Of a stretch of 64,000 bases of DNA, positions 6,028 to 62,581 are shown piece by piece. The notes below the pieces were generated by a model. The model was not told the origin of the DNA. It was given only the letters and a program-made list of their open reading frames with translations, and did not search any database. The position numbers and the translations under genes were made by a program. The DNA comes from Amyloporia xantha. Its lineage: Eukaryota; Basidiomycota; Agaricomycetes; Polyporales; Adustoporiaceae. Position 1 is the stretch's first letter, and the number at the start of each line of letters is the position of its first letter. The stretch covers positions 1-64,000 of the forward strand of contig JAYKKR010000009.1 of the NCBI GenBank assembly GCA_036971615.1, written 5' to 3'.

Positions 6028-8283
6028 CTATTCTAGTCCAAGACTATGTACAAATTTCTCATGAATAGAGAAAGATAAATTCTTAGTGAGGATATCGGCC
6101 CTTTGCTCAGCAGTAGGTACAAAGAAAAGATCGACATGACCGTTTTCAATGAACTCTCTGCAAAAGTGGTACCGAATATCAATGTGCTTGGTTCTTCTGT
6201 CATGAGCTGGATTAACCGCAAGAAAAATGCTACCATTATTATCAATGCATAAAGGTGTGGCATTTTGCGGCTTAAAACCAATCTCAGACTGAAGAGTCCG
6301 AAGCCAGGCTAATTGTCGACAAGAGTCGGACAACGCCATGTACTCTGCTTCTGTTGAAGACAGAGCGACAGTCTTTTGTTGCCGCGAGACCCATGAAATA
6401 GCAGCATCTGCCATAAAGAAGACAAAGCCACTAGTTGAATGCCTATCGTCCTTGTTCTCAGCCCAATCAGAGTCAGAATAACCTATGAGTCCAGATAATC
6501 CGCTGCCTTTGTAGCAAAGCCGAAGTAAACGTGAACCGTTCAAATAACGAAGAATATATTGTGCGGCTTTATAATGTTGCATTGTAGGCTTAGCAGAATA
6601 TTGGGAAAGGCGATTAACTGCATAGGCTATATCTGGACGAGTGCCTAAGGCGATCCACAAAAGTGAACCAATGAGCTGCTGGTACTTTGAACGAAGGGCG
6701 GCATCAACTTCATATGAAGGATCTGCTTTGACAAGGTGTACACCAAATGGAAGGGGAGTTCGTGTGGGTGCTGCATCTAGCATTTGGAATCGCTCGAGTG
6801 TCTCTTCAATGTATTTAGACTGATCAAGCCAAATGTTTCTGGATGATCTATCTCGAGTAATCCGCATGCCTAGAAAAGATTCTACAGGCCCAAGATCACG
6901 AACATTAAATCGCTTCTGAAGACAACCTTTGAGCCATGCAATCTGACGCCGATCAGACCCAATTGGCAATAGATCGTCAACATATACGACAAGTATTAAA
7001 TCCCCCCCATGATGACGATACACATAAATACCCGCATCAGAATATGTACGTGTGAACCCTAATTCCAACAACGCATTGTGGAGTTTTTTATTCCACTGTC
7101 TGCCAGCCTGTTTAAGACCATAAATAGCCTTCAAAAGACGACAGACTTTGTGTTCCTGACCAGGGACTTTGAATCCTTCTGGTTGCTCCATATATATCTC
7201 CTCGTCTAATTCGCCATATAAGAATGCTGTCTTTACATCCATAGCCTCTACCTCCCAATCATTAAGAGCAGCATGGGCGAGTAAGAATCTTATAGATTCA
7301 AAACGAGCGACAGGGGAGAATATTTCATCATAATCGATGCCTTTGACCTGTTTAAAGCCCTTGGCTACAAGCCGAGCTTTGTATCTTCCACCAGGTTTAA
7401 TAGTGTAAACCCAACGACAAGGTACCGCCTTACGTCCAGGAGGTAAGTTGACTAACTCCCATGTACCATTCTCCATTTGAGAGTCTATCTCTTCCTGCAT
7501 AGCGGCCTCCCACTGAGTCCTATCAGGGCGAGAGATTGCTTCCTGATAAGATTGTGGAAAAGGTCCGTACTGAGGATTGGCGTTGAGAATAAACTCTACT
7601 GGAAGATCTGAGATGAGATTCTCCATGACATCAGGTAAACCACCTCCTTGATCAATGTCACGCTGTATAGCTGCAGGGTGACGATCACCATACGCATTGT
7701 CAGGCCGTGGTGGAGGTCTACCAGCGGTTGACCGAGTAGAGCGTCTAGGTACAAATGGAGGAGGTTGTGGTACTGGAGGCTCATCTGGAGAAGGTGGACG
7801 AGGTGGAGGAGATGGGTTTCTAGGCGGTTCTGGTGGTGGTCCCGGATGTGGAGGCAAGTCAGCATCCGGTTCAGGCCTATTAGCACCATCATCACCAAGC
7901 GGCAGGGCCGGCTGTGGTGCTGGAGCTACAGAAACGGGCGGCTCATGCGGTTGTTGGGCAGCGGGAATAGGATTCGCACTTTTGTTCGGAAAGGATCTCT
8001 CATTGAATACCGCATCGCGCGATAAAACAATGGAGCGGCTATCTTTATCCCAGAATCGATACCCCTTTGATCCAGGTTCATAGCCAACGAACACCATAGG
8101 TTTAGCTCGAGCCGTGAGCTTATCCTGGTGTCGCTCCTTCTGAACATGTACATAGGCTAGGCATCCAAAGACTCTAAAGTACGACACATCTGGAACAGCA
8201 CCATTCCATAATTCAATGGGAGTACGCCAGTGTGCTCTGCGGAATGGCTGACGATTGTAAATATGAACGGCAGTTTCAACAGC
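6028..8283 (-). CDS. Copia polyprotein, C-terminal part: integrase end, reverse transcriptase, RNase H
   Basis: The open frame continues from the insertion point at 8283 to a stop at 6028. It starts in the integrase C-terminal region (ETAVHIYNRQPFRRAHWRTP) and goes through a Pro-rich linker (about 7700-7900). The reverse transcriptase follows with its typical segments: WVYTIKPGGRYKARLVAKGF, AIYGLKQAGRQW and the catalytic YVDD at about 6970. RNase H comes last, with STEAEYMAL (about 6340) and HIDIRYHF. No stop or frameshift is seen. The first residues of the longest open frame upstream of 8283 belong to element A, not to Copia. Together with 31720-33716 it forms one reading frame once element A and one 8-bp repeat are discounted, so the Copia was probably intact when it was hit. 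Confidence 0.95.
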   Translation of the reverse strand, partial: AVETAVHIYNRQPFRRAHWRTPIELWNGAVPDVSYFRVFGCLAYVHVQKERHQDKLTARAKPMVFVGYEPGSKGYRFWDKDSRSIVLSRDAVFNERSFPNKSANPIPAAQQPHEPPVSVAPAPQPALPLGDDGANRPEPDADLPPHPGPPPEPPRNPSPPPRPPSPDEPPVPQPPPFVPRRSTRSTAGRPPPRPDNAYGDRHPAAIQRDIDQGGGLPDVMENLISDLPVEFILNANPQYGPFPQSYQEAISRPDRTQWEAAMQEEIDSQMENGTWELVNLPPGRKAVPCRWVYTIKPGGRYKARLVAKGFKQVKGIDYDEIFSPVARFESIRFLLAHAALNDWEVEAMDVKTAFLYGELDEEIYMEQPEGFKVPGQEHKVCRLLKAIYGLKQAGRQWNKKLHNALLELGFTRTYSDAGIYVYRHHGGDLILVVYVDDLLPIGSDRRQIAWLKGCLQKRFNVRDLGPVESFLGMRITRDRSSRNIWLDQSKYIEETLERFQMLDAAPTRTPLPFGVHLVKADPSYEVDAALRSKYQQLIGSLLWIALGTRPDIAYAVNRLSQYSAKPTMQHYKAAQYILRYLNGSRLLRLCYKGSGLSGLIGYSDSDWAENKDDRHSTSGFVFFMADAAISWVSRQQKTVALSSTEAEYMALSDSCRQLAWLRTLQSEIGFKPQNATPLCIDNNGSIFLAVNPAHDRRTKHIDIRYHFCREFIENGHVDLFFVPTAEQRADILTKNLSFSIHEKFVHSLGLE
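8276..8283. repeat. 8-bp target site duplication of element A, left copy
   Basis: TCAACAGC here is repeated exactly at 31720-31727. It lies inside the Copia codons for an AVE stretch of the integrase region. Confidence 0.95.
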
Positions 8284-8900
8284 ACACCTTTCAGTCACTG
8301 TACCCCTGACTCCTAGGACATATATGCCTGACAATGTAGCCTGACCCTAGTGGCGCCGGACGCCGGCCGACGCCCCCGCTGTGACCTACGAGACAGCATC
8401 GCCCGACGCGCGCTGCATTCCCCACAGGTATAGCGCGGCCGAGGTGTACCACTATCACATAGAGCTAGGCCCGGCCGATAAGATATTTTATTGACTGTCC
8501 TTACTCTAAGCGCGGCCGCTCGTAATATGTTTCCCTATGGTGCAAGACCGCGCGAGACCACCGCGACCGACCCGTCTCGCGCCGTGGGCCATACTGCAGG
8601 CTCGCGCGATGCCATTTCCGCATCTTGGAAGTAAGATCGGCCGATAAGATATTTTATCGACTGTCCTTACTCTAAGCGCGGCCGTAATATGCTTCCCTAC
8701 GGTGCAAGACCGCGCGCGAACGCGACCGGTCAATCTCGTGCCATGGTGCTTGGAGACCTTTTTAAAATATTAGGTATCATATTTACCGATCCTGTTGCAA
8801 GATGCGGAAATTGGCACCAAGCGGGTTTTCAGCATGTCGTGAGTGCACGCGCGCGTGAGGAAGCCCCTTAATTTACAACACAATAACCAGACCAATCCGC
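8284..8900. repeat. Left terminal region of element A
   Basis: Contains the CAGTCA-type end, the box CGCCGGCCGACG at 8361-8372 (one mismatch from the palindrome) and several GGCCG boxes. A direct repeat of about 166 bp starts at 8473 and 8639 (ggccgataagatatttta). The rest, to 9077, shows no gene. Confidence 0.8.
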
Positions 8901-9077
8901 ACTTAGGCACGGTCGGGATGTAGTCCTATATGGTGTGCATACTATAGGGCGCAATGTAGCTATTATACACTGCAAAATCAAGTACTGTTATGGTTTGCCT
9001 TAGCATACATGCACAGCGCGGTGGAGGCGAAGTTCACATTGAGATTACAGTGAAAATGAATAGGGCTAAATTGAGGT

Positions 9078-10303
9078 CTACTTTGGACCACCATCCTCGT
9101 CCTCATCCGGTGAGGGACACCCATCCACCCACAGCCTTCTCTCTACTTCGGAAATCGTCCTTGCTGTCCTCCTTGTTCTCAGTAGCTGCTGAATCCCCCG
9201 CACCAGAAAGAGGATGTCCTCGAGCGCCTCAATGTCGCGGTTGACCGCGATCAACTGCTCGCGAGAGTGTCTGCGCACATCGCGAACGTAAGTGGCCTCC
9301 CTCACAGAAGGAAACCCTATGTGAAGATAAATAGCCTGTTAGGATAAACTGCAAGATTACACACCTTGTCCAACAGTCTCCTTTATGTAGCTATATCGAG
9401 CGGGGTCAGAAACAGAAGGTGGCGGGCGCGCAACAGCGTCGTCACGCGGCAAGGGTCTCCGAGCCTCAGTCGCGGGTGCAACATTGGATTCCTCTTCGTT
9501 ATGTGTGATTTCAATCGAGCTTTGTTCTTTGAGAGTGTTCCAATCTTTCTTACCTTTGCATTTTCCTTTCGCGTCTGCGTTGGCACGCGCAATATCATCC
9601 AGCGCGTCATTCGAATCGACATTAACGACATCGTTCAGGTTGATCGGAGAACGCTCGAGCATGCTCCTCTGCATTATATGAGTGGTAGTACTTGTAGTAC
9701 TTGTGCCATAGCTGTTATTTCAGACGTACCTCCATTACTGAGGTCACCGCTATCCTGATTGAACATGTCTGCCAGGTCCACCGGTGATCGGTCACGAAGA
9801 ACGGCTCCTACATGAAGCAAGTTAAAACAAGCTGGGCAAACAATTCCCTCACTCACTATTGTGAGCTACATAGTCGCCAGCGGGAGGAATGTCAGTATCC
9901 TGATCGAGGATGTCGAGCTCAATGGGGCTCCGAGAGCGTTCGGAGACTTCGCGCGGATGTTAGATGAGATCACAACATCGAGCGACCCGAAACATTACCT
10001 GGCTCGAGATCAAATATTTCCACATCAATCGGGGACCGCGCGCGGGTGTTCATGTTGTTGTCTTGGAGCGCCGAATCGACGCCTTTGAGATTTAGGTGAA
10101 ATGGACGAAAGAAGCTCCCGAAATGGGGCTGGAAATGGCTCTACTTACCAGTGTTCGATTCCAGGTCGCTAGATTCCGACATGAATGCGTCGAGGGTCAC
10201 CGGAGATCGTTCTCGATCAAACACAGCTACAAAACATCAGTATCAGTCATGCGCGAGACGCGTACTCACAGTTATCTATGTCAGAGTCCATCGCCCGCGC
10301 CAT
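9078..10303 (-). CDS. Gene a (element A, left): exon-modular 'SPI-repeat' protein
   Basis: Seven exons read on the minus strand from MARAMDSDIDN (10303). Exons 2 to 6 each encode one copy of a short motif: RERSPVTLD, RARSPIDVE, RSRSPIELD, RDRSPVDLA and LERSPINLN. Each motif is followed by an acidic tail, and the exons are separated by introns of about 45-70 nt. Exon 6 adds a charged, disordered stretch. Exon 7 (9078-9312) is a predicted coiled coil (REQLIAVNRDIEALEDILFL) with an acidic tail. The same plan occurs at 29274-30642 and, in diverged form, at 39444-41151. No known domain is recognised. The repeats look like short linear docking or phosphorylation (SP) motifs, so a scaffold role is a guess. 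It is head-to-head with gene b. All frames close cleanly with the introns proposed. Confidence 0.7.
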
Positions 10304-10554
10304 TTGTCCGCGCGAGATGAGGTCGGTTGGGAAGACGAGACACTGAGTGGAATACGACAGTCGCAATCAATGCAGATTGCTCACGATCGCCGCGAAACGT
10401 GACGAGTTGATCGAGCGCTGCTGACATAACCCGTAACGCATTCAGTTCCTCGAAGGTCGCGCGCATCAAAGTCAGTTCTAACCTCCATCTCCTCCATAAC
10501 CAGCTATTCGCCTGATTCACTATCTCCGTTTCATCTTCAGTCCTCTCCCACAGC
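10304..10554. promoter_or_regulatory. Shared divergent promoter a|b (element A, left)
   Basis: 251 bp separate the two start codons. The same head-to-head arrangement recurs at 28921-29273 and 41152-41394, so co-regulation of a and b is likely. No specific site was identified. Confidence 0.5.
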
Positions 10555-13251
10555 ATGTCTGACACCACCATCCGCCAATTGACCATTGATACCGCGACCG
10601 CGCGTCTGGGTGCCGCGCTTGCCTGCGCTCCCCTCCCTGAAGCACCGGAGTACATGCGTTATGAGCAAATGGTCTACACCGAGTTTGTGAGTACAACGAT
10701 GAGCTCGCTGTCAAACAACTAATATGTTCATCCACATTAGAAAAAGGGCTGGCACGCCTTCCGCGACGCGCCCAAAGATGTGAAAAGGTCGCTTCGCGTC
10801 CCAGCATTGTTGTTCAGTGCGGTGCTGGAGTACGTGGCGTCTAGGAACGGCGCCGACCTTCGCCGCATTCGGGTCGATGACCCGCGGATTTCTGCCGAGC
10901 GGAAGAAGGAATTTGTTGTGCCTGCCCCTACTCGGGAGGTCGAGCTGGGGAAGGACCAGTGGTGGACTGTAAGAGGTAAGCAACATTTTTGTCATTTGTC
11001 TAGGGAACTGACTGAGACTTTGTATTTACCAGCGGAAGCTCCTGTTCCTGCCGCTGCATCTGGCGGACCAACATCGCCGAGCGCGCAACCTGAAGCGTCA
11101 AAGTCCCGCGCGAGTGGCCAAAAGCGGAAGTCGTCCGCTGATCAGGACATGGAGCCCGCCCCCACCAAAACTGCGAAGCCATCCCGTCAGGCCGACGCCG
11201 CGACCGAATCCCGCCCGTCCCAGCAGCGCGCGGTATCCCAGTCTGCGGCGAGCACGTCCTCACAGCCACCCCCATTGGCAGGCAAGGGCACTGTTTGCGT
11301 CGCGCAGCCATCGCAAGCAAAGCCCAGCCATCAGTCACTCAAGAACATAGGCAAGCATGACTCCCGCGAAAATCGCACCCACATTCCCTACGTCAGCGTG
11401 CCCCGTATGGCTGCCCAATCGAGCAGAACCACTGTAGCTCCTGTCGACAAGTCCGGGGCCACGGGGGCAAGGAAGCGGTCACGGCAGGAAGCAGAGGATG
11501 CGGATGAGGAGGATACGGACGATACGGACGATGAGGGGGTCATGACAAGGATGATGGTCCCGACGAGAATGACGAGGAGGTGGATGACGACAGTGAGGAG
11601 GAAGCATCCCCGTCGCAAAGGAAAGGCAAGAAAATGGCAGGAAAGGGCATTCCTCGGAGGTCGACGCGGGGAAAGGAGGGAACCGACAAGGAGGAGACCG
11701 AGAAGGAGAAGGAGATCCGCGCCAAAGCCGCTGCCGAGGTCGCGAAGATTGAGGATGCAGCCAAGGACGCGACTGTATCAGTAAGTACTGTCATCGCGTC
11801 ACCTTCACGCTACTCACCCATCTTTTTGCTAGCTGGTACCGTGCACGCTGTGCATCGCGAATAAGCAGCCTTGCAAGGTCGCGCCATCATCTTTCGCGCG
11901 CTGCATCCGCTGCGCGCGGAGCAAAGGCAAATGCTCTTTGGCCCCTCGGACACCCACCGGCAAGGCAATCAGCGGCCGCAAGAATGTCACGGAAACCGCG
12001 ACAGCATTCCAGGAGTACGCCCGGCAATGCATCAAGGATGGCATCAAGCCACCGACCAACACGGTCTACTCGCGCGATGCAGGCTTTTTGCATCAAGATG
12101 AAAAGGGCCACAATGTCCTTCCCGATGGGCAGTTGTACGAGGTGTACAAGGTGAACTTGACGAAGGCGCCCGGACCTAAGACGTCCGCGACTACGACCAC
12201 ACCCAAAGTCGTGCAAGCGCTGCCGAAGAGCAAGAGGGCAAAGCGCGACCCGAGGTTGAAACCCACCCCACCCCCCATTGACGTGGAGCGAGAAGGGTTG
12301 ACAGCCCCGGCGAATCCAGGACCCAGTCGGGCGCCCGTCGCGAAGACACCGGGCGTTGGGCAACCCCCTTCGCGCAACGCGAGCTCGTCGCGGAAATCTC
12401 AGGTCACCTTCAGCAAACTGAACGCTAATGAGCCTGACGAAGAGCAGGAAGAGGAAGTCGACGAGCTCGAGAACGACACTCACGGCAGTGTTCACCCCAG
12501 CGATCGCGACATGGAGTGGGATGCCGAGCCGCGAGAACTAGCCGCGAAGGAACGAAAGTTAGCAGCCAAGGAGCGAGAGTTGGCCGCGAAGGAGCGCCTC
12601 CAGGCCCGGCAGCTCCAGAAAGCGGTTCGTGCTCTCGAGGCCAAGTTTGCTTCACTGGACGATGAGCTCGACCACGAGCTGCCGTCATTGGCTTCGAGGG
12701 TGGAGATCCGCAGCGTGTTGGAAGACGCATCCGTGAAGCTGCAGGAATATTCCAAAGACCACATCAAGGATGCAGTGGCTCCCGTGAACTCGAAGATCTC
12801 GTCTCTTTCCAAGCGGCTTTCCGAGGTCGAGATTGCGACAGGAGGTAATCTGCAGGCACGGATCAAGCAGCTCGAGGAGCGCCATAATGGCATGGACAAG
12901 TACGTGAGGACGCTGGGCAGCAACTACAACACGCTGGGAACGATTGTGGAGTCCTCGAGCCAGCGCATTAAAGTGCTCGCGGACACCCTCAACGCCGTCG
13001 AGCCTGCAGAGCTTCGCGACTCTGTTGTCAACCTTCGCGAGGAGGTGAAGAAGATGCAGCAGAGCCTGGATGCGTTTTCAGTCGAAGCATCCCTGAGCGC
13101 CATTTCCGCGCAGATCAACGGATATGCAGGTGAGATGGAGGAGATGCGCAGGCAGCTCAATGATGTGGCTAGGACGCACGCCTTCAGGCCCGGGCCCCTG
13201 TTCCCCGTACATACCCCCACCGCGGCCCCCTTTCACGCCTACTCAAAGTAG
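10555..13251 (+). CDS. Gene b (element A, left): Zn2Cys6 cluster and coiled-coil protein
   Basis: MSDTTIRQLTIDTATARL starts at 10555. The N-terminal helical domain (with KKGWHAFRDAPKDV, about 10741) spans two exons and includes a conserved VDDPRI segment. A long disordered Ser/Pro and acidic linker follows. A cysteine cluster C-X2-C-X6-C-X9-C-X2-C-X6-C lies at about 11842-11934, which is the spacing of fungal GAL4-type binuclear zinc clusters. After a conserved KAISG...AFQEYARQCIKDGIKPP segment comes a second linker and a long heptad-rich coiled coil (about 12520-13180). The likely role is a dimeric nuclear DNA-binding protein of the element. One frame change is needed at the G-run 11531-11535 (five Gs; six would restore the frame). 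Paralogues: 26136-28920 and 41395-44167. Confidence 0.75.
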
Positions 13252-14187
13252 TGCATCTGGGAGCTCGCAAGACAGCAGCGCGGGCGCACGCGCTTGCGGA
13301 AATGCCTTCGGCTCGACCCTCAACAAGGGCGCAGGAGGACCACAGTGAGGAGCGAAGCCGCGGAGGGTATCAGGGTGTCGCGGACTGTCCGTAGAGTAGC
13401 CGCTGTAGTTTTAGCATATACGTATCGCCCAGCCGCGACAGAATGGGACTTCAACAGTCCCACATGAAATATATTAGCTAACTCAATCTTTACAAGTCGT
13501 GTGATTGTAAACGACGCAACTCCATAGGTGAGGAATCCACCGCGACACGTCCGAAATCCACCGCGACACTTCAGAAATCCACCGCGAACTTGCATCCGCG
13601 ACCGAATCCTCCAAGGCACTAGAAAGCTGCTCTCTGAAGGTCATGACAGCAGCACGGAACCTACTTGCTTCTGCCCGCGACAATGTTTGCCGTTCACTCG
13701 CGACAATTGCTCGCGGGGTGCCTGCCTCAGCCACTGGGCTCCTATCCACTTTCAAGTCGACCCGTGCAATTTCGCTGTTGACACCCTCCGGCTTCCCGCG
13801 TCGCCGCGACACTTGCTTTCAGAATTGGCTGATATCCTTACATTCCCTGTGCGGGAGATTCGCATTATATGCCCCTAGCTATTGACTGGGAGAAACACTC
13901 AAAATACCTCAGTTAATAAAGGCTCACAAAGGCTATTTTTGCAAACACATCCCGCCCGACACCTTTGTCGCGACGATTGGACACAAACTCGGACAGCCTT
14001 CGCGCGTTACAGTAGTGCACCTCTTGAGGGAAAATGCGCCCACGACAGGCTTACGCCTGACGCTCCCGTACGTCAATGTTGTAACTATCTCGCGACCATC
14101 ACAATACGTATATATTTGCATTTCTACACATGAGGGAGACTACGCGACCAATGGCGGAATATCCGCGGGAGTGAACGAAGCAGCAAA
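13252..14187. other. Intergenic between convergent b and c1
   Basis: No gene is seen. The sequence keeps the element's CGCGA-rich character, with a short tandem-like run of ccgcgacacttcagaaatccac variants near 13537-13600. It probably holds the 3' ends of the two flanking genes. Confidence 0.5.
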
Positions 14188-14936
14188 TCAGGGAACCTCC
14201 TCCCGAATTGCATACAGCACGCGCGTGCCCCTTGGATTGCCTCCCTCCTGCAGCGCGAGCATTCTGGCCGCAATGTATTGGCCGCCTTCGGAGTGGTCAA
14301 TCGTGATTTTGACTTGATCCGCCTCTGCGGTCTCCCTGTCGATGAGCTCCTGAAAATTGCAATGTCAGAACAACGAGGACAATGTGATATTTGAAACACA
14401 TGAACCTACCAATGTAGGTGAATCCCACCACTCCGGATTGTCGTCGTCGCAGTCGGGCCACTCCCACCAGATTGTGTCGAGGTGGTGCTCCGAGGATAGG
14501 ATTTCCTCAGGAGGCGGCGCCACTTTATACGCAATTGGTACCGCGGCCAGCTTGTGAATGTCGAGGTCCCACTCGACATCGAACCGCGTGTGCGCGACCG
14601 CGGCGTGGATAATCTGCGGCAACCTCACCTCCTTCCCCCCGCGGGCGAGCACAATCTCGCCAAGGTTCGCAAGACTGTCGCGCTGTGTGTGGTTAATCAG
14701 CGCGATGAGCTCAACTTGTCAATGATAGTGACTAACGAGTTCTTTGATAAGGGCGACCTTCCAGCGATCATACTGGAGGTCCGTCCGGGGAGATCACCGG
14801 ATGCAATCCGTTCATTGAGCCTCCGTATGGCCTGCTCCATCCGCCACGCGCGGTAGCGGAACATGCGGGTCGCGGTCTTCTCGAGTTGATGGGCGGATGC
14901 TTGGGCAGACATTTGAGCCGGGAGGACAGAAGACAT
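14188..14936 (-). CDS. Gene c1 (element A): small Trp-rich accessory protein
   Basis: The start at 14936 gives MSSVLPAQMSAQASAHQL. The first exon encodes an amphipathic helix pair (RMFRYRAWRMEQAIRRLNERI). The second encodes a compact domain with LPQIIHAAVAHTRFDVEWDLDIHKL and the signature WWEWPDCDDDNPEWWDSP (about 14425-14470). The last exon gives a helix ending REEVP with stop at 14188-14190. Introns lie near 14360-14415 and 14660-14720. It is paralogous to c2 and to the single c gene of element B (57551-58305), which keeps the W-W-x-W-P...W-W signature. No known domain is recognised. It lies upstream of c2, both on the minus strand next to KDZ. Confidence 0.65.
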
Positions 14937-15674
14937 TGCGAAATGGGAAGAGGGTGAAATGAAGATGGAGCCCTGCCCCCGCACACCTCGCCGAATATTT
15001 AGCATCTCCCACCTGGTCACCTCGTGGCCAAAGTGGTTCCCATACACGTGTCAACCGCGCGTTCGCGAAGCAGGGAGGAAGAGCGGTGATGCGCATGAGA
15101 AGCAGCAACATGTCACAAAGGCCTTGGGCTTGGGCAGATGACCTGCCTGCAGGCTTCGCTGCAACTGTCCCAACTCGGTAATAAGATTACTTTGGCGCGG
15201 ATGGTTCGCGGCAATCCAAAAGGGTAAAAGCCCGCGCCGCGAGGTCTTGAGGATGTATTCGATAAGAGTTGCCATGATGCGCGCACTCCCCGCCGATTAT
15301 CGCAGAAGCGACCGCGCCAAATGCGCGTTGAGTCGTGAGTGCGACTTATGGATCTGATAATCATTGCGAAGCTCGGCGTATGAATGTGCGTCATGTCAGG
15401 CACTTCATGAACATTCTCTGATGTCCATGAACATGCTCGGCAAATGCTGTGCATGCTATTGTCCCCGATGTGTACGGAATTTGCTATAGGCTCGGCAAAA
15501 CGCGGTCGTCCATCGCTCTGACCGCGACCAATGGCCGCGAGCTCACCGCTGATGTGAGAGTTGGGACGTACTGCCCGCCTTCGTGCTATGCATTCCAACG
15601 ATCCTCAATCTCATGGACACCGGGTGATCTTGCAACAACATTGTATTGAGACGCGAGAAAATACAACAGACGTG
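14937..15674. promoter_or_regulatory. Upstream region of c1 with duplicated promoter block
   Basis: Positions about 14990-15060 (gaatatttagcat ... cacctcgtggccaaagt ... cacgtgt) are closely repeated upstream of c2 at about 16494-16562. This indicates that c1 and c2 arose by duplication together with their promoter. The rest (15130-15674) has no recognisable gene and includes the 3' end of c2. Confidence 0.6.
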
Positions 15675-52381: not shown

Positions 52382-53647
52382 ATGATAGCGGGCAGCGGCT
52401 TGGAGCTCAGCGACACATTGGCAGCTTGCATGCGCGATATGTTTCAGTTTTGGCTACACAAGCTTCGGAATGCAGCCGGACAACCGAGAAACCCACAGCC
52501 TCCCACACATATCCGCGCCGATATCGTCGTCGAATGCAGCCAGATCGCGCACCAGCTCGCAAAGGCATATATCAAACCTGGTGTGTACTCTTGGATGCTG
52601 TGGGCATCTACTCATTCTGCGCTGACCGGGAAGTAGTGCGCTTATCCTGGGACATTGACCGCTATTCTGATGCTATAGGCGTGGGCAACACCGGACAGAA
52701 CGTGAATCTGGAGGCGCAGCTCAAGACTAAATGGCCGCCTCTCCTCCCAGACACCACCGTGGTTCTAGATGAACCCTGCGTGCTCCTCGACCAGCACTCG
52801 CGCATCCTAGCATGGGTGCTTCCGGGCGTCCTTCATGTGAATCGCCAGGTGGGCGCATTCATCTTCCGCCATGCACCGCGCTCACTACGCTGTGTCGGCA
52901 GAGAGAGATACAATTGGCGACGGCCCACCTATCAACACAACTGATGCGTAAAGCCCCGGGGGTCAGTTGGCGAAACCATGAAGCATATTTCCGCGATCGA
53001 TCAACCTGCACCACACCTCCGGGGACTGTCAATCTGTCTCCAGGATGGCACGCGCTGGGTCACACGGTACGCTGACGATCCCTTAACTCTGATGACTGGC
53101 GAATGACGGCGCATACATCCAGGGCCCATTGGACCCAATGCTGCCTTCGGCGAGCTTACGCGATAAAGATGGCCAGAGTGGATGGCGATGGTTGACCGCC
53201 ATCCGTGAATCAGCCGCCATCCTATCCGCCATGATGTCCATCATGCATCCCGACCTGTATGCTGCGGGACATACATGCATGGAGTCGCTTCTTGGCGAAG
53301 TGGAGTATCCCGCAATAGTAAGCGCTTGGTCTTCGATCTTCAATGGCGTTCAGGTCATCAGCAATCGCGAGACGCCGCTACACCGCGATAAAAACTTGCG
53401 CAAGCAGTGGTTCGACCTTCTCACCACGGTAGGGAGCTACGGCGCATTGGAAATGCAGCTGGATGGTCCAAATATCGCTATAGACTACAAGGCGGGTAGC
53501 GTAGTTGCGCTTTGCGGAAAGCTTCTGCGCCATGGCGTTCAGAGATGCGATGGAGAGCGCATATGCTACGCTTATTTTATGAGGGACTCAGTGCATGCCG
53601 CGATGAATGTCAAGGCACCGCACTGGATGGAGTGGACTTATGGTTGA
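52382..53647 (+). CDS. TET/JBP-family 2OG-Fe(II) dioxygenase (element B), intact
   Basis: Four exons from MIAGSGLELSDTLAACMRDMF. Exon 2 has VRLSWDIDRYSDAIGV and WVLPGVLHVNRQ. Exon 3 has AYFRDRSTCTTPPGTVNLSPGWH. Exon 4 contains the catalytic core: WRWLTAIRESAAILSAMM, then QVISNRETPLHRDKN with the iron-binding His (53381) and Asp (53387), a Trp two residues after KNLRKQ, the distal His in LLRHGVQ (53531), and ERICYAYFMRDSVHAAM with the 2-oxoglutarate Arg. No stop interrupts it. The family oxidises methylated cytosine in DNA; members next to KDZ transposases are established in mushroom genomes. Here it may protect the CpG-rich element from silencing. Tail-to-tail with KDZ, 67 bp apart. Confidence 0.92.
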
Positions 53648-53714
53648 ATACACAGATCTGTATTTGTGTCAAGTCTATGTTTGTGTATCTAGTAGGGTCG
53701 TGAATGGCAAACCA

Positions 53715-56700
53715 TCACACACATGTATTAAAGCGAGAAGCGGCATGCTCTGCCATGCGCGTCCACAGCGAGGCCTGACGGCGCGCATAGCATACATGAC
53801 CTGGAGGCCCATAGAGGCGGGAGCGCCATAGGTTCGCCTTGTTATGGAAGCTCGCCTGCGTCCACGCCATCTCTGCCGTGACCATGACAAACTCCTCCGC
53901 CCACCTATCCTTACGTGATTTTGCACGGAACCAGTTGACGCGATGCACTGCCGCGCTGCAGTCAGCATTGCGGGCATTGGACGGACCACAAGCGCACTCA
54001 CACTCCGTCAACCAGTTGGACTGCGTTGAATCGCCCTCGATGTCTACGGTCCATATCCAGGACAACTTGTCCTGCCGTGTTCCTCGGATGGAGTTGTCGA
54101 GCAGCGCGGTGATCGCCTTGAGGTCATCATGTTGAATGGCACGGAAGCGCGCTTTGATGGCGTCAGTCGGATTCAGAGCGAGGATGGCGTGGCGGCTTTG
54201 ACTGTAAATGCGCACGTTCTCTAGCACCGCCCTCTGCGTGGAGATGACCTCGTCCCAGGACCGGAGCTTTTGGCGCTGGCTCTTTGCATGACGAACCGCC
54301 GTACGAAACAGCACTGACTTGTAACCAATGGCGAGGCGAATCTGATGAAGGGCGTCATTGGCCTGCCCAATGCGCAAACTCAACTCCTCCGAAGCGATGT
54401 CCTCTAAACCGCTGGCCACGACAACATCGTAGCCAAGCTGCGATGGAAGTGAAATGATGGCGCTCTCAGGCTGGATTCCAGAATCGATCTCACCGGTGTA
54501 AATCTCATCAAGAGGATTGACATCTTCCTCCAGTGCATCCCATTCAGACCCGTCATAAGCCTCTGAGGCGCCATCCCCATCGGGCTCGGCCACAAGTGGA
54601 ATGTACGAAGCGGCTTTGGACTCGAATGTCACTATACGCTTCTGAAGGCGCTGACGGCGCTCCTCCAGTGCAAGGCGGTCCGCCACCAGCGGATGCCGGC
54701 CCATCTTCCGTTTCAGTTGGCTAATGACCAACCTAAGACCTGTTGTGAGCTTGGCACCCGATGTTCAATGACGCTACCTACTGCAATTCCTGAATCTTCA
54801 TGCCCGTGGCTATCCATGCAGCTACGCCCTGATGGCGATGTTGCGATGTTTCCGTTTGCGTTAGTTGAAGTTGGATCTGCATCCGGGTGGGTGCTGCGCC
54901 ACATCATTAATCATGGCCGTACCCTCTAGTGTGCACTCTCACCCTTTCTCATCTGCACGTCAAAGACATCCATCGCGCTGATTTTAGCGTCACGCATGGC
55001 GAGCGCCTCGCCCTCAGCGGCTCGCCACTCTCCTAGCTGCTCCTCCGTGCTCGATCTCTCAATGAACTCCAACACATCCCCGCTCTCCGTGGCGCCGGCT
55101 TTGGCCTTTCGCCATTTCCTAACAAGGGTGTTCGCTGTTGAAGCCACAGTCAATCAACCTCTCCACCAATGTCAAGGTTGGCCCACCCATCCCGGTCAAC
55201 TTCTTCCAATTGGAATCATTCATGTGATCGTCAATGACTTCCTTTCTATGTGCTGTGGTCATGCCGCGTGTGCTACCCGAAATGAGATTCAACGGCGCCC
55301 AAAGGGTTTCAATCACTTCGCCATCAATCTGACCAGCACCGGGAATGAAGTTGGGTGAGTAGCGAGGAAAGCATGTGTCTTGATGGCCGTGGACATGAAA
55401 CAGGCCTATTCCGCGCCGTATCTCCACGTTCGGCGGCATGTGCAAATACTCACTCTCCCCAAACCGCTTCATGAGATTGATGCCGTATTGACACATGATG
55501 TCGTACATCACCAGCAGCACCTGGATACCCGCCATGGTGGCGAGCACCTCGCTCAGCGCGTAATCCATGTTCATCTGTCTGATGGCGGGTGTAAGTGAAC
55601 AAAGGAAATAGCAAACCACTTACCTCTCGCCTTTCTGGAAATCAACCACCGCATGCGGCATGAAAAACCCATGGCGCGCACAGGCCGCGGCGCCAATCCC
55701 CGTGGCTTCAAGGTTATGGCGATCTGCATTCGCCTGGTTGACGCGCGATGATCGTGACAGAAGGATTTCTACATAGGCTATGAGCGTCCAACGGTTCATC
55801 CACTAGGAGTCGATCACGGACCTCTTTATGCTCGATGGCGACCGCGAGATGCTTCTTGTAGGTGTCATCGCCCACCATGAAAGTCGCCATCGCTGAGAAT
55901 GACGTCGTCCTCTGGGCGACGCATCTTGAGATGCTCCGCGCTAAAGTTGCCGTCCATTACGATGCTCCTCATGTACTTCCATCTGCTATCGCGTTACACA
56001 TGCCGCCCAAAACGTCTTACATGGCTCACTGTACGGGGTCATCACGCCATCCGGAAGCGAGATTCACGCCAGGCTTGGGACATGCCGGGCACCCCAAAGC
56101 GAGGCCACCAGCTGGTATCGCGTTGGAGGCGCCATGACCATATCCATGCCATTTGCGGTATTTGAGGTTTCGCCATTGGCGGGACACCCGCAGAAGCTCT
56201 CTGTAACGGTTCTAGCCCCTTCTCAACGGCGAAAACAGCTTCATATGCACATAGCGGCTTACCTGCACTGAATGCGGGAACGCGGAGTTTGTGACACGTC
56301 GAAGCTTGCTGTAGTAATTCATCCCCGAGGTTTTGCACTCCTTGTTGGTAAGCAAAAAATCATCCAACACCCGAAATGTGAACGCAGTGCGTGGCCGCTT
56401 GGTGCTCCCAGGATAGAGGCCCATGTCCAATAGTTGCAGGTCTCGAGTGAGCCTGTTATCGCACCGACACCACACAACGTCCAGGCTATGCATCCCCGTA
56501 ACATCTACAATGGTCAAAGTGTCAAATGCGTAGTGACTTCGCGGCGCCGTCGAGTCCGCTTTGATTGGCTCTTCATCCTCTTCATTGTCCCCGGCGTCAC
56601 TCACGTCGTCGTCTTCGCCATCGCTATCAGCATCCCCATCCAGCGGCGTGATCGGGGACTCCGCATCCACACATGGTTCGCCATCATGCCCGAGATGCAT

Positions 56701-57275
56701 CCGCACCCCAACCTCCCGAAGTCACGCCGGTTCGAAGAACCCATCCGCCCACTTCTCCACCCGATGCAGCGGCATGCGGCGATGCGTCAACTGCAGGCAG
56801 TCCTCGCAATACACGGGGCGCCCAAAGCATTCCAAGCAGCGCCAATCGCCATGCGCATCAGCGCATTTGCTGCATCGTCTCTCACCTGGTGGAGCTTCTA
56901 GCTCGATGATGTGGCTTAGATACACATCGCGAAGTGGAAGCCATTCGCGCATAAAGTCGTTCTGCGACTGCCCCGCCTTCGGCGTTGACATTGAGCGACC
57001 CAAATAAGGCGACGGTACTCACCTTGTGCAGACTCTTCATCGGCATCACATCGTCAAACACCACATGCTCCTGCATCGGGTTCGGAATATGCGTCATGAG
57101 ACGCGGCTTTAGAGGGGGATTTCGACGGCGATCTTGATGCGCTTGTCGGCACATGCGCACGCGGTAGCGGTGCTTCCTTGGGAACGTATGTGACGGTGCC
57201 TCTTGCAGTTCGCCGTTCTTCGCGACGCACGAACACCGCATCGCCACTGACATGTTGCTTCTTCGTGCGGGCCAT
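53715..57275 (-). CDS. KDZ transposase with CxC2-type cysteine clusters (element B), one internal stop
   Basis: MARTKKQHVSGDAVFVRREE starts at 57275. A basic SPSKSPSK region is followed by the Cys/His cluster (CSKCADAHGDWRCLECFG..., about 56740-56880). A TGA at 56722-56724 stands where element A has the Trp codon of SPAWLND. Beyond it the frame stays open: MGLYPGSTKRPRTAFTF, LDDFLLTNKECKTSGM, DHRAVNQANADRHNLEATG, HGFFMPHAVVDFQKGER, LLVMYDIMCQYGINLM, HVHGHQDTCFPRYSPNF and IDGEVIETLWAPLNLIS. The helical C-terminus ends at 53715. Introns match element A. Apart from the TGA I see no break in the core, so this copy is close to intact. Confidence 0.9.
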
Positions 57276-57550
57276 GGCCGTATCACTGCGGACAGATGAC
57301 AATTGGCTTATTGTGATCCATGACAGCTTCCTTTTCATACTGAATGGCGATCTCTCACGCCCCTGCCTCCTGATCCCTTATCAACAACGGATCATATCCA
57401 CGCGATCACCTTCAGATACTTGGCCGATGCTTATCTCCGACGGATCTTCGCCATGACCTTCCCTCGAGGCGATCACCCGATCCACCATCGACTCCTCAAA
57501 TTCGCCTTGCATTTTGCCTTGGCCTACCAACCCATTCACCCCACGGCGCA
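57276..57550. promoter_or_regulatory. Shared divergent promoter KDZ|c (element B)
   Basis: 275 bp between start codons, the counterpart of 16438-16695 in element A. Confidence 0.5.
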
Positions 57551-58305
57551 ATGGCTCTCGCCTTGAAGAATCGCGAACAGTCCCTCTCCAGCCTCATCGC
57601 TATCAACCGCCGACTGATCTCATACTATGCCTGGCGCTGCGAGCAGGCGCTAGCGACCATCATGTCTGTCGCCGCCGGTAGAGACAAGGTGGCTGGCTTC
57701 GACATCACCTTGGCGCGGTGGGAGATTGGCCTCCGCATGGAAATGGTAAGCTTCGCCTTCCCCAACGTGTCTGCTCTGACGCTCAGCAGGAAGCCCTTCG
57801 CGACTGCCTTGGCCGCCTCGCCCTCGTCGGCGTCACCGACGTCGAGCTCCCCGACGTCGTCCGCAAGATCAGCGACGCCACCGTCTTTGGGGCCGTCCCA
57901 CGGATCCACGTCCTCGAGATACAGCCGTTCACGCCGCTCGCCTCGCCGCCATCCTTGCAGCTACAGAAGCTGCGCACAGAAACCGAGCCCGCGTGGTGGA
58001 CTTGGCCAGACGACCCTCCCAGTCACCTTCCAGCATGGTGGAAGTATCCACTGCATGACAGAGTAAGTCGCCACCCCGCTCCCACCTTTTCAACACATTC
58101 ATTCACATAAATTGCATCGATTGCCGCATAGCGTCGCGGCGACACCTATCAAGTCAACTACCGCGATATGAGAGCGGTCAGCCATCGATTGGATGACGTC
58201 GAACGCCTGGTCACCCGCTTCGCCGAGAGCCGCCATCGCGATGCCGGCGACCTCACAAGGATGTTGGACGCCTTCAAAGAGGTGCTGTTGCCAGATGAGG
58301 AGTGA
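57551..58305 (+). CDS. Gene c (element B): small Trp-rich accessory protein, intact
   Basis: Three exons. Exon 1 (MALALKNREQSLSSLIAINR) contains ISYYAWRCEQAL, matching the FRYRAWRMEQAI helix of c1. Exon 2 has VELPDVVRKISDATVFGAVP, IHVLEIQPFTPL and WWTWPDDPPSHLPAWWKYP, the diagnostic Trp-rich signature. Exon 3 is a predicted coiled coil (RAVSHRLDDVERLVTRFAESR) ending EVLLPDEE at 58305. All frames close with introns at about 57746-57789 and 58063-58131. The domain matches nothing I know. Conservation of this gene beside KDZ in both elements, despite strong nucleotide divergence, suggests selection for an element function. Confidence 0.7.
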
Positions 58306-60300
58306 GACCGGGTCTCTGCGCGCCATGTCGTAGGTGGATCTCGCCGTCGTCTGTATGTATTTCTTGTCGCTGCCTTTATGAGCACGAGTGCATGACGTCC
58401 CCAGCGTCTCCCATTTGTTCAATGGACCTTGTCTTTAAGCGGCTGAATCACATTACCATCCAATCATGTGGATGGCGATGCGATTCAGACGCTTAACTTC
58501 GGGGTAGCATTGACGAATGGCCGAGCTCGAGGACGCCAGCAAATCATGCTCTTTGGACATCGCGCCATGTCAAAGGTGGGTGTTTTCAGGTGGCGTATGT
58601 ATCCGTTTCGTCTGCGCGGTGAGTGCATAAATGCATGACGTCCTTCTGCGCCAGCCAATTCTTCAATGGCCTTGGTATTCAAGCAGCTGAATCGGATGGC
58701 CATCCAACAATGGTTGGATGGCGATTCGATTCAGATGCTTTGATCCAGGGTAGCATTGAAGAATCATGCAGGTCGAGAACGCCAGCACATCACGCCGGCT
58801 GCGCACCATGTGCCTCGCCTGCGCGCGCCATGCACGGCGCCATCGGATGGCGCATATTGCCGCTGAACGAGGCGGCTTCATCTATGACCTTCGGAGCCAC
58901 AGGTATGCGGCTCTGAAGAGCATAGATGAAGGCGCCCTGTCTGGCGAGCCATAGCGCCATCTCCCAACAGTGAGCATGAGCGCGCCATGCACGGCGCCAT
59001 CGGATGGCGCATATAGCCGCTAACGAGGCGGCTTCGTCTATGACCTTCGGAGCCACAGGTATGCGGCTCTGAAGAGCATAGATGAAGGCGCCCTGTCTGG
59101 CGAGCCATAGCGCCATCTCACGGTGAGCATGAGCGCGCCATGCATGGCGCCATCGGATGGCGCTCATCGCTGCCGGACAGCGCAACTTCCATCTGTGGCC
59201 CTCCGAGCCGCAGGTATGCTGCTCCGAGTGACACAGAGGAAGGCGCCCTGTCTGGCGAGCGATAGCTCCATCTCCCAACAGCGAGCATCAGCGCGCATGC
59301 ACTTCGCCATCGGATGGCGCCCGTTTCCGCCGGACAAGGCCCATTTGACTTATGTCCTTCTGAGCCACAGGTATGCGGCTCGGAGGAACATAAGTCAGGT
59401 CTTCCTGTCTGGAGTCTGACTCTCTAACGTGAGTTTCAAATTTATGGTCTGCATGGATGCGGGATTCATGCAAGGCGCTGTTGGATAAAGCCATTAACTC
59501 CTTGCTCTCTACGTTCACCAGTGGAATCGAGTTGCCCTCTGCGCCATGAGTACTCCGGATGCAGCTGAATTGTCCATCAGCATCAGGGGTACTCTCAAAA
59601 CGTGGACGGTGATTCGATTCCTCTGGGTGACCCAGGGTAGCAAGGATGAAATGGCCCCGTCCAACAGCGCCAGCACATCATAACACCTGCGTGCCATACG
59701 CCTCACAATGTGGCAGGCAAGGTACGTGGCGCATGGTTGCATAGTGCGTCTGGACATGGTGGCGCCATGATTCCATAGCGCATGCTGCCGCTGGAGATGG
59801 CCATTGGATCTGTGTCCCGCAGAGGGTCCAGACAGCTGGATCCTTTGAAGGACACATATCAGATGGCCCAGTCTCTGCGCGTGTCTTGGGTTGGGCGAGA
59901 ATATGTATTAGATGCTGGTAGGTGGGTAGATCCAGTTCAAATGACCTTAGCGTACATGAAATATGTGTAGCGGTAGAATATAGCACGATGCTGCCGCTTG
60001 AGATGGCCATTGGATCTGTGTCCCACAAAGGGTCCACACAGCTGGATCCTTTGAAGGACACATGTAAGATGGCCCTGTCTCTGCGCGTGTCTTGGGTGGG
60101 GTGTATGGAGCCGTCGGAAATGGCCAATCAGTCCTTGCGCTTTGAATTGTAGTCACACCACTGACCTGACCACACACGAAACGTCGTGATGAATGACAGA
60201 TTGCAAAGCCTAATGGATGGCGAGGCATTATTATTATTATACATACAGCATGAGATTTATTGAAATGCATATAATTAAAGCGTAGAAAAGGAAACAATAG
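58306..60300. repeat. Array of long imperfect hairpins (element B)
   Basis: No coding gene. At least eight units fold back on themselves, in three families: 58411-58520, 58655-58764 and about 59550-59670; four units of about 150 bp between 58822 and 59420; and 59790-59870 with 60000-60080. In the second family the stem sequences change on both arms together while the loop acaggtatgc is conserved. A short ATT microsatellite lies at about 60227-60240. The four-unit block also contains gccatcggatggc palindromes. It may encode structured or small RNA, or act as DNA cruciforms. Confidence 0.8.
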
Positions 60301-60309
60301 GGCGGAATA

Positions 60310-61029
60310 TACTACTTCAAGGCGAGAATATACCACGATAATATGGCGCAGTCGGCCGCGCCGTGTCTACAGGCTATATTATAGCCCTCGGCCGACACTA
60401 CTTGCAGGCGAGAATATACCACGATAATATGGCGCAGTCGGCCGCGCCGTGTCTACAGGCTATATTATAGCCCTCGGCCGACACTACTTGCAGGCGAGAA
60501 TATACCACAGAAATATGGCGCAGTCGGCCGCGCCGTATCTAAAGGCTATATTATAGCCCTCGGCCGACACTACTTCAAGGCGAGAATATACCACGATAAT
60601 ATGGCGCAGTCGGCCGCGCCGTGTCTACAGGCTATATTATAGCCCTCGGCCGACACTACTTGCAGGCGAGAATATACCACAGAAATATGGCGCAGTCGGC
60701 CGCGCCGTATCTAAAGGCTATATTATAGCCCTCGGCCGACACTACTTGAAGGCGAGAATATACCGCAGAAATATGGCGCAGTCGGCCGCGCCGTATCTAA
60801 AGGCTATATTATACCCTCTCGGCCGACGCTACTTGAAGGCGAGAATATACCAGGGAAATATGGCGCACTCGGCCGCGCCGTATCTACAGGCTATATTATA
60901 CCGTCTCGGCCGACCCTGCACTGCAGGCTATAGCGATGGCGTCGGCCGACGTCCGCTCTCCTTACTAAGTAATAAAAATTTCACCCATATCTCTCCCTAT
61001 AGAGTAGGCTATAATGACTGAATGGGCTC
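60310..61029. repeat. Right terminal inverted array of element B
   Basis: Seven units with gtcggccgcgccgt (the last one ctcggccgcg) starting at 60351, 60437, 60523, 60609, 60695, 60781 and 60868, 86-87 bp apart. They are the reverse complement of the left array. The palindrome at 60940-60951 and the end TGACTGAATGGGCTC follow. Confidence 0.92.
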
Positions 61030-62581
61030 TGGCCTCCTCCACAACACTAGTCGTCCAAGTCTGAGTGCGTAATGGTGAAGGCTTTGGATCTTCAAGCCTG
61101 TCGGCTGGACAGCGACATTTTGGACATGTACCATACTTGGAGCAAGTCACAAGACATTGCTCGGGATAGTCGGCCACATATGCAGCCAAGATTGGATAGA
61201 CTCGCCGAATGGCACCATCTCCGCCTGTCATCTCAACCCCCTGCTTGCCGGCCTTCAATAACGGAGAAAGAATATGGCGCATTGACTCGTGAAAGAGTCG
61301 CTGATTGCGTGCACGCTGCTCTTGCTGTGTCAGCTTGCTTCGCGAGATTTTGTCCACCGAAAGATAGCCCAGCAAGACACAGGCATGCTGAGACGGCTTG
61401 CGACGAATGGATTTAGGCAGGTTGCCAAGAGTGAGATAGATGGGATATGCGGATTTGCCTCCCGTGAATTGTGTCAGCTGTGTCTTGTCTGTCGCTATAA
61501 TCAAAGGCGCCAGTGTGGCACCAGGCGGAAGACAACTCTGAATTTCTCGGTCAATACGTAATGATTCACATATCAAAAGGAATACTCACTTGTACAGCGT
61601 GCCACCATGAGCCTGTCCACATCTCATTGTAAATCCTGTTGGTCCGACTTGCATCAGAGAATATCTTCTTCGGCTTGTAGACCATGTGTTTCGCTAGCCC
61701 AGGATCTCCCCATAGACATCGCACAGCTTCCACAATGTCTCTGTGACGAATGACATGAATTTCCTGAGGACGGTCTTTGAAGGCCAAGTGCTTCACATGC
61801 CACTTCCCCGCACGATCAGGTATACTGTCGACAATCTGATTGAGGGCCCGAGTGTTCTCGTAGGAGAGACCCAGCTTTTCCTTAACCTGTCTCCCCATGT
61901 GTTACATCTTTGCCACAAAGAATAGAGGGAAAGGAGACGTACACCAGGGATAGCCAACAAGCAATTGAAGGCATTGTGGCCGGGGTTGTCCTTGATCATC
62001 CAATTTGCAATACGCCAGTCCATCTCCGAGTTGAATGGATAGAAGAAGCCCCTGTCTTTCTCTCCGGAATCTGAGTCGGTGTCTTCATCAACATCCATTC
62101 TATCCTCCTCTGCATCTTGCCCGAAAGACTTCCGCCATCTCTCATGAAGATTGTCATTCATGCGAATGACCTTGGCTGCCCCAGAGTAGACATCCTCCAC
62201 TCGAGAATCCTCATCATCATCCAGAACACGGGTTTGGGCAGCACGAGAGCCATGAGCGAGAGTGGATGGACCAGGGCCTGCCTGTCCGATAGCAGGGTTC
62301 TCCAAAGGGATGAAATGGAATAGATCATTCTCTTCAGATATCTCCTCCATGACATCCGCAACGTCTTCATCTTCATCGGTCTGTGCTTGTCCAACATCCA
62401 CATCTGCCACCAATTCCATGGGTCCCCCCTCCCCTTCCAAGTCCAGTGGGCCGAGGTCCGCAAGCTTTCCACGACGATACCAAGAACATGAGCGGGAACT
62501 GGTGAGATGCGAATTGCAACCTTTTCTAGTAGAGAAATACCGGCCACAAGCAGGACAAATGCAGTTGTCCAGGATATCCAT
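61030..62581 (-). CDS. Plavaka transposase, N-terminal part (split by element B)
   Basis: MDILDNCICPACGRYFSTRKG starts at 62581 with a C2HC-like zinc finger, then a long acidic linker (about 62450-62040). Introns lie near 61895-61940 and 61567-61595. Family segments follow: EKLGLSYENTRALNQIVDS, EAVRCLWGDPGLAKHM, DKTQLTQFTGGKSAYPIYLT, IRRKPSQHACVLLGYLS, GDGAIRRVYPILAAYVADYP and CLVTCSKYGTCPKCRCP. The frame meets element B at the TGGCCTCC duplication. The open frame upstream of 61576 that seems to run into 60965 includes element B sequence. With 37059-38596 it makes a complete-looking Plavaka transposase gene. Confidence 0.9.

What the first reader, a model, noticed from the sequence alone, without database searches (positions are those of the whole stretch)
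8276..61037. Two complete giant KDZ transposons with exact ends and 8-bp target duplications
Element A (8284-31719, 23,436 bp) and element B (38597-61029, 22,433 bp) share the same termini (ACACC.T.CAGTCAC at the left, TGACTGAAYGGGCTC at the right). Each is flanked by a perfect 8-bp duplication (TCAACAGC; TGGCCTCC). Each interrupts another transposable element whose reading frame continues across the site, which independently fixes the borders. The KDZ-TET/JBP pairing is known; complete multi-gene elements with mapped borders are the new part.
Basis: partly seen in the sequence, partly recalled or inferred. Interest (0 to 1): 0.92.

Follow-up and report, generated by a model that had tools for sequence, protein, structure and literature searches.

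The report
Large TET-carrying fungal jumping genes
The two elements are real, complete 22-23 kb jumping genes that belong to a large family in this genome; complete elements of this broad kind were published in 2025, but here the ends carry precisely spaced repeats and a companion DNA-binding-type gene that suggest a testable way to escape silencing.

Summary
Elements A (8283-31719) and B (38596-61029) are complete KDZ transposons, but the target duplication is 7 bp, not 8: the element starts CACACC, and in both window copies the next host base happens to be C. The assembly holds 126 right and 128 left ends; 83 of 122 analysed left ends pair with a right end carrying the same 7-mer (shuffled mean 4.3). 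Of 46 such elements of 16-26 kb, 44 carry both transposase and TET/JBP hits. Copia and Plavaka copies without the insert give exact empty sites. Complete TET-bearing Kyakuja elements with 7-bp duplications were published in December 2025, so mapped borders are not new. Not found in print in my searches: CGGCCG arrays at a fixed register in both ends (first site 81-82 bp from the tip in 71 of 78 ends); a gene with a six-cysteine zinc-cluster pattern inward of the left end in 46 of 46 full-size elements; one family with its gene core inverted; and TET-less short relatives. I propose a cut-and-paste element with self-targeted anti-silencing; the targeting step is inference only.

The parts
8276..8282 (.). 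7-bp target duplication TCAACAG, left of A
   Evidence: sequence; 7-bp length from genome-wide ends
8283..31719 (+). Element A, TTT/C family, 23,437 bp, CACACC...GGGCTC
   Evidence: 98.6-98.8% identical to three further copies over more than 23 kb each
31720..31726 (.). 7-bp target duplication TCAACAG, right of A
8364..8684 (.). A left subterminal CGGCCG sites (82, 154, 190, 231, 356, 397 bp from tip)
31251..31639 (.). A right subterminal CGGCCG sites (81, 117, 206, 292, 378, 464 bp from tip)
   Evidence: two more lie 1.9 and 2.9 kb in
10741..13206 (+). A g1 left copy: six-cysteine zinc-cluster pattern (approximate model)
   Evidence: exon 11833-12336 holds the cysteines
13985..16675 (-). A gX, unknown, two related blocks (approximate model)
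   Evidence: no Pfam match for a frame in A or for the D copy
16696..20406 (+). A KDZ transposase gene, about 12 exons, with CxC2 cysteine cluster (ends approximate)
   Evidence: KDZ 6e-42, CxC2 6e-17
20345..21609 (-). A TET/JBP gene; one in-frame TAG in the catalytic domain
21990..25570 (+). A g5, large gene; counterpart of an HMG-like exon in B (approximate model)
26478..28896 (-). A g1 right copy, inverted paralogue of the left copy (approximate model)
38589..38595 (.). 7-bp target duplication TGGCCTC, left of B
38596..61029 (+). Element B, ATA/T family, 22,434 bp including the nested LTR element
61030..61036 (.). 7-bp target duplication TGGCCTC, right of B
38677..39239 (.). B left CGGCCG array, 14 sites
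60353..60948 (.). B right CGGCCG array, 15 sites, near mirror of the left one
   Evidence: left and right ends 93% inverted repeat from position 5 to 648
42491..43177 (+). B g1 exon frame with six-cysteine zinc-cluster pattern
45065..49326 (.). LTR retrotransposon nested in B, two identical 905-bp LTRs, 5-bp duplication GCGGT; absent from neighbouring copy C60:68750-86909
49847..51704 (-). B g5 counterpart, HMG_box_2-like exon 51420-51677 (E 0.0046, under the cut-off)
52394..53641 (+). B TET/JBP gene, catalytic exon without stop
   Evidence: its close relative in copy C matches CcTet
53721..56970 (-). B KDZ transposase gene
57769..58050 (+). B gX counterpart (27% over 97 aa, E 2e-5)
6031..8282 (-). 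Host Copia element, 3' half (RVT_2), interrupted by A
31727..33734 (-). Host Copia element, 5' half (gag, rve)
37462..38595 (-). Host Plavaka transposase gene, 3' part, interrupted by B
61037..61585 (-). Host Plavaka transposase gene, 5' part

Best explanation
A and B are members of Kyakuja-like KDZ cut-and-paste transposon families of about 18 kb (ATA/T and TTT/T) and 23.5 kb (TTT/C). Shown by sequence: the borders, the 7-bp target duplication, and a shared gene set of KDZ transposase with CxC2 cluster, AG-like TET/JBP oxygenase, a zinc-cluster-like protein g1, a large protein g5 and a small protein gX. Inferred: the transposase makes cuts staggered by 7 bp and joins the asymmetric CACACC / GGGCTC tips. 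Both ends carry palindromic CGGCCG sites at a fixed register, which I read as binding sites for the transposase or for g1. The most likely role of TET is oxidation of 5mC on the element's own CpG-dense ends and promoters, keeping it expressed and mobile. Most speculative step: g1 binds the arrays and directs that action. TET-less 4.6-6.2 kb ATT/T elements with the same tips would be moved in trans. The confidence below is for the transposon identity and anatomy; I put the TET role at about 0.5 and the g1 step at about 0.25.
For: 83 of 122 left ends pair with identical 7-mers, 75 distinct, mean 4.3 by shuffling. KDZ and TET both in 44 of 46 full-size elements, g1 in 46 of 46. Paralogous empty sites. 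Copies 98.6-99.3% identical. Low dN/dS in conserved blocks between copies A and D: 0.06 KDZ, 0.08 TET, 0.11 g5, 0.20 gX, 0.21 g1. First CGGCCG at 81-82 bp in 71 of 78 ends and at 117-118 in the other 7, steps mostly 50, 36 and 37; the 8-mer TCGGCCGA is absent from the six full-size cores examined, while tip-aligned identity between families over positions 31-260 is only 0.27-0.57. Six cysteines invariant in 5 g1 copies (two of them nearly identical) with zinc-cluster spacing. CpG transitions exceed other C/G-site transitions 5.3- and 7.7-fold between recent copies, consistent with CpG methylation in this genome.
Against: No expression, methylation or mobility data. The elevated CpG transition rate in TET-bearing copies (higher fold than Copia's 3.3) shows that TET does not fully protect them. 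The 6-mer CGGCCG, unlike the 8-mer, also occurs in cores at 0.12-0.33 per kb. Array length varies, down to one site per end. g1 stays below Pfam's Zn_clus cut-off (best 15.6 bits, E 0.018, cut-off 21) and its model is of low confidence (mean pLDDT 57). A's own TET has an in-frame stop, so A may depend on other copies. Many KDZ and TET hits (87 of 150, 52 of 114) lie outside the TSD-bounded elements. The kinship 'Kyakuja' rests on duplication length, CxC2 and TET type, not on a tree. dS is near saturation, blocks were chosen by identity, and A's TET in that test is a model.
Confidence: 0.85

Rival explanations
1. The arrays are bound by the KDZ transposase itself (for example through its CxC2 cluster) to build the synaptic complex; TET and g1 are unrelated to end recognition.
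For: Arrays are on both ends of the three short ATT/T elements read, and none of the 9 ATT/T elements has a KDZ, TET or g1 hit, as expected for sites used by a transposase acting in trans.
Against: Array length varies (from one site to ten or more per end), which is loose for a synaptic site; g1 is present in 46 of 46 full-size elements.
Confidence: 0.4
2. TET/JBP and the other genes are passengers; the element works with the transposase alone.
For: The short ATT/T elements without TET or g1 hits bear the same tips and 7-bp duplications; A has a stop in its TET.
Against: 44 of 46 full-size elements keep KDZ, TET and g1 and dN/dS is low for all five genes tested.
Confidence: 0.12
3. The elements are Zisupton or Dileera with 8-bp duplications, as the first reader's 8 bp would suggest.
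For: The two window copies alone are compatible with 8 bp.
Against: The eighth base matches in 16 of 74 non-array elements, as chance gives.
Confidence: 0.05
4. Copy number and mixed duplications partly reflect assembly errors at 18-24 kb repeats of about 99% identity.
For: Several left and right ends with the same 7-mer lie on opposite strands or on different contigs.
Against: 76 of 122 left ends match their nearest right end and the 83 pairs show 75 different 7-mers; the main result does not depend on the mixed pairs.
Confidence: 0.2

Closest known systems
TET+ Kyakuja transposons (Kojima 2025, PMC12730594; parts 1-4 of 7 and search passages seen)
   Same: KDZ transposase, AG-type TET/JBP, 7-bp target duplication, 5' CA start
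   Different: That paper reports 5'-CA..TG-3' termini and no inverted repeats for the two Laccaria families; here tips are CACACC...GGGCTC, and B's ends form a 93% inverted repeat from base 5, with phased CGGCCG arrays. I saw no account there of g1, arrays or an inverted core; its figures, tables and supplements were not seen.
KDZ1-KDZ3 of Cryptococcus neoformans (PMC12810828, passages seen)
   Same: KDZ transposase, inverted repeats, target duplications, shown to move
   Different: 9.2-11 kb, CxC1 rather than CxC2, 4-8 bp duplications; the passages seen mention no TET in them
Giant KDZ of Ectocarpus (up to 30.3 kb) and Chlamydomonas (31.7 kb, active) (PMC12477816, passages seen)
   Same: Giant size, additional genes, nested insertions, copies apparently moved in trans
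   Different: Other lineages; no TET or phased arrays mentioned in the passages seen
VANDAL/VANC anti-silencing in Arabidopsis (PMC10398659, abstract seen)
   Same: Element-coded protein acting on tandem repeats in the element's own non-coding DNA to relieve silencing (as a model)
   Different: Plant elements; TET not mentioned in the abstract; binding is reported there and only inferred here

Membership tests
KDZ superfamily | KDZ transposase domain PF18758 over cut-off | tested here: met
   144.2 bits against 26.6 for the A model; in situ hits in A and B
Kyakuja, TET+ | 7-bp target duplication | tested here: met
Kyakuja, TET+ | AG-type TET (HxD, and Asp at the CcTet 337 position) | tested here: met
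   copy C (relative of B) aligned to CcTet has HRD and the Asp, Ser at the 331 position (residue meaning from PMC12730594)
Kyakuja, TET+ | 5'-CA..TG-3' termini, no inverted repeats (reported for two L. bicolor families) | tested here: not met
   CA...CTC tips in 39 of 39 elements read; 93% inverted ends in B. Unknown whether this defines all Kyakuja; hence only 'Kyakuja-like'
Kyakuja, TET+ | Transposase inside the Kyakuja clade | not tested
   no named KDZ reference sequences on hand; the transposase itself was not sent to the protein database (only g5 was; one unnamed hit)
Zisupton / Dileera | 8-bp target duplication | tested here: not met
Fungal Zn2Cys6 proteins (g1) | C-x2-C-x6-C-x(5-12)-C-x2-C-x(6-8)-C | tested here: met
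   six cysteines invariant in 5 of 5 aligned copies, two nearly identical; pattern recalled
Fungal Zn2Cys6 proteins (g1) | PF00172 above cut-off | tested here: not met
   best 15.6 bits, E 0.018, cut-off 21; so only zinc-cluster-like
HMG-box proteins (g5) | HMG Pfam model above cut-off | tested here: not met
   18 bits in B, cut-off 22.4; none in A
Sequence-specific anti-silencing (VANC-like) | Protein binds the element's own repeats and lowers methylation | not testable with these tools
   needs binding and methylation assays

The most novel reading that the evidence does not exclude
A fungal DNA transposon carries a self-targeted demethylation module: an element-coded zinc-cluster protein reads phased TCGGCCGA arrays at the element's ends and brings the element's own TET/JBP oxygenase to them, a fungal counterpart of plant VANC anti-silencing with a built-in eraser.
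Probability: 0.25. Interest if true: 0.85.

Novelty: new variant of a known kind. Interest (0 to 1): 0.52.

Why it matters
Why transposons carry TET genes is an open question. This genome offers what is needed to test it: many near-identical complete TET+ elements, TET-less relatives with the same tips, and paralogous empty sites. The phased CpG-rich palindromes give a concrete DNA target, and g1 a concrete candidate reader. If the arrays only serve the transposase, the families are still a clean system for KDZ end recognition, whose binding sites I did not find described in the passages read.

Tried and rejected
Eight-bp duplication: rejected. B as a longer gene set than its neighbour: rejected, the extra length is a nested LTR element. 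HMG and Zn2Cys6 family names for g5 and g1: not claimed, scores lie under the cut-offs. TET as full protection against CpG decay: not supported, CpG transitions are high in recent TET+ copies; the low CpG observed/expected of the three short ATT/T cores (0.33-0.40 against 1.02-1.10 in the seven full-size cores) may reflect a different origin of that DNA and lacks a host-gene baseline. Structure of the zinc-cluster exon: low confidence; its fold search never started, and the second structure job was not used. Protein search with g5: one unnamed 59% hit. The species was not identified; 'fungal' is inferred from introns, CxC2-KDZ, Plavaka and AG-like TET. Whether subterminal arrays in Kyakuja are in print: the search Kyakuja + subterminal found 0 papers, KDZ with zinc cluster and HMG found 2, in whose passages seen I found nothing on this; subscription papers, including Iyer 2014 (recalled, not read), and supplements were not seen.
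Full report
1. Observation. The termini were read at both elements. Searches of the assembly that holds the window (46.8 Mb, 60 contigs, unnamed) show 126 right ends TGACTGAAYGGGCTC (reversed-pattern control 0) and 128 left ends CACACC(A/T)T(A/T)CAGTCAC (20 plus 108). All 126 right ends were listed; of the left ends 120 were listed and the two window ones added, so 122 were analysed and 6 were not. In one search the base before ACACC was left free (100 rows listed of 138), and each listed row with an exact core has C there. The element therefore starts CACACC, and the duplication is 7 bp. The base after the 7-mer on the right is unbiased, is C in 16 of 74 elements outside one repeated array, and in 6 of 30 separately fetched elements. 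In both window copies that host base is C by chance.

2. Genome-wide family. 83 of 122 left ends have a same-strand right end within 80 kb with the identical 7-mer; for 76 it is the nearest right end; 5 more differ by one base. Shuffling the right 7-mers gave a mean of 4.3 and at most 12 in 1000 trials. The 83 have 75 distinct 7-mers; 9 share CGACTGC and lie in tandem arrays, so they are not independent insertions. Together the 83 span 1.63 Mb, nested DNA included. By end type: ATA/T and TTT/T with a mode near 18 kb, TTT/C near 23.5 kb, ATT/T 4.6-6.2 kb; ten ATA/T pairs are 3.5-12 kb. Of 46 elements of 16-26 kb, 45 have a KDZ hit, 45 a TET hit, 44 both; of 19 below 13 kb, 1 has KDZ and 0 TET; of 18 above 26 kb, 16 have each. 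The KDZ list was cut at 150 of 174 hits, so KDZ misses may be overcounted. Only 63 of the 150 KDZ and 62 of the 114 TET hits lie inside a TSD-bounded element: many other KDZ and TET copies exist elsewhere in this genome.

3. Empty sites. Flanks of A joined at the duplication match 40 of 40 scored Copia copies without interruption, one at 100% (61 first-look candidates). Flanks of B match 5 Plavaka copies without interruption at 99-100%, among 27 matches of which 2 are the window's own halves. Pfam confirms Copia (gag, rve, RVT_2) and Plavaka on the flanking frames; joined stop-to-stop frames of 1,420 and 561 codons cross the junctions. These two sites cannot by themselves tell 7 from 8 bp.

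4. Gene content. A and B share, in the same relative order, gX, KDZ transposase, TET/JBP and g5. KDZ of A has CxC2 and KDZ domains. TET of the B-like copy C matches CcTet in the PDB at 1e-31, keeps HRD and the later Asp. g1 has six cysteines invariant in 5 aligned copies, two of them nearly identical, C-x2-C-x6-C-x(8-9)-C-x2-C-x6-C, below the Pfam cut-off. g5 has an HMG-like exon in B (E 0.0046, below the cut-off). Gene models come from a similarity-guided script and are approximate, above all at their ends. dN/dS in conserved blocks between the A and D copies is 0.06-0.21, with dS near saturation. A's TET carries an in-frame TAG; B's catalytic exon does not.

5. Core inversion. Of the 46 full-size elements, KDZ runs against the left-to-right direction in all 39 ATA/T and TTT/T elements with a KDZ hit and with it in all 6 TTT/C. 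The A copy's block from gX to g5 is inverted relative to D while the left part with g1 is collinear, and A carries a second, inverted g1 on the right. A g1 hit lies 3.1-4.4 kb from the left end, pointing inward, in 45 of 46 and at 6.1 kb in the other; one TTT/T element has a second hit at 7.4 kb; all 6 TTT/C also have the inverted right copy (hits merged). A single past inversion between inverted g1 copies would explain this; that is inference.

6. End architecture. In 39 elements (30 fetched plus 9 held) all tips are CACACC / GAGCCC (right end reverse-complemented). The first CGGCCG is 81-82 bp from the tip in 71 of 78 ends and 117-118 bp in 7; steps are mostly 50, 36 and 37 bp. In ten elements the two terminal 1.5-kb stretches hold 11-29 sites against shuffled means of 0.3-1.4. 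TCGGCCGA is absent from the six full-size cores counted (B, C, A, two A relatives, D), though the 6-mer CGGCCG occurs there at 0.12-0.33 per kb. Families keep the register although tip-aligned identity between families over positions 31-260 is 0.27-0.57 (seven ends compared). In B the two ends are a 93% inverted repeat from base 5 to 648, except for the asymmetric first bases; in A no such repeat was found at the tips.

7. CpG. Seven full-size elements have CpG observed/expected 1.03-1.10, three ATT/T elements 0.59-0.66 (cores 0.33-0.40), Copia flank 0.68, Plavaka flank 0.83. Transitions at CpG against other C/G sites: 5.3-fold (A relatives), 7.7-fold (B against C), 3.3-fold (eight Copia copies). 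So CpG decay acts here, also on TET-bearing copies. No host-gene baseline was available.

8. Prior work. Kojima 2025 reports complete TET+ Kyakuja elements with 7-bp duplications, CA..TG termini and no inverted repeats in Laccaria (parts 1-4 of 7 read, passages). KDZ delimited by target duplications or inverted repeats is also reported in the passages seen of PMC8290104, PMC12510652 and PMC12810828, and giant KDZ in PMC12477816. A Pleurotus paper links intact KDZ to CxC2, and an Agaricus paper counts Kyakuja and Zisupton families. So the finding is a well documented new member, with end architecture and g1 as the parts I did not find described.

9. Mechanism. Shown: exact ends, 7-bp duplication, gene set, phased arrays. 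From family knowledge: KDZ enzymes are taken as DDE/D-type transposases (recalled) and TET/JBP oxidises 5mC. Inferred: arrays as binding sites, g1 as reader, TET as eraser for the element. VANC proteins of Arabidopsis act on tandem repeats in their own elements (abstract); that is an analogy, not kinship.

Noticed in passing
C60:68750-86909, just right of the window: A third complete element (ATA/T, 18,160 bp, duplication ATGCAGA), about 99% identical to B without B's nested insertion.
   Followed up: yes
window 45065-49326: LTR retrotransposon nested in B with two identical 905-bp LTRs and GCGGT duplication: very recent.
   Followed up: partly
C34:2221200-2284297; C25:79301-102706 with C41:163563 and C4:18376; C12, C21, C6: Left and right ends with the same 7-mer on opposite strands or different contigs, as if elements had recombined and inverted or exchanged the DNA between them; misassembly at 99% repeats is not excluded.
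   Followed up: partly
C16:348958-457720, C24, C39: Tandem arrays in which the same duplication CGACTGC recurs with spacers of about 3.7 kb: an inserted element seemingly amplified together with its target.
   Followed up: partly
C23:349396-374268: Five right ends 6.2 kb apart, all followed by GAGAACG, a second tandem array derived from an element end.
   Followed up: partly
C17:624207 and C17:647122: Two further left ends with A's own duplication TCAACAG, and two TET hits there each with one TAG: possibly a duplication of A's locus.
   Followed up: no
C30:188316-189065 and C58:127078-127842: The two best KDZ hits of the genome are uninterrupted and lie on contigs without any listed end of these families, pointing to further KDZ lineages.
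   Followed up: no
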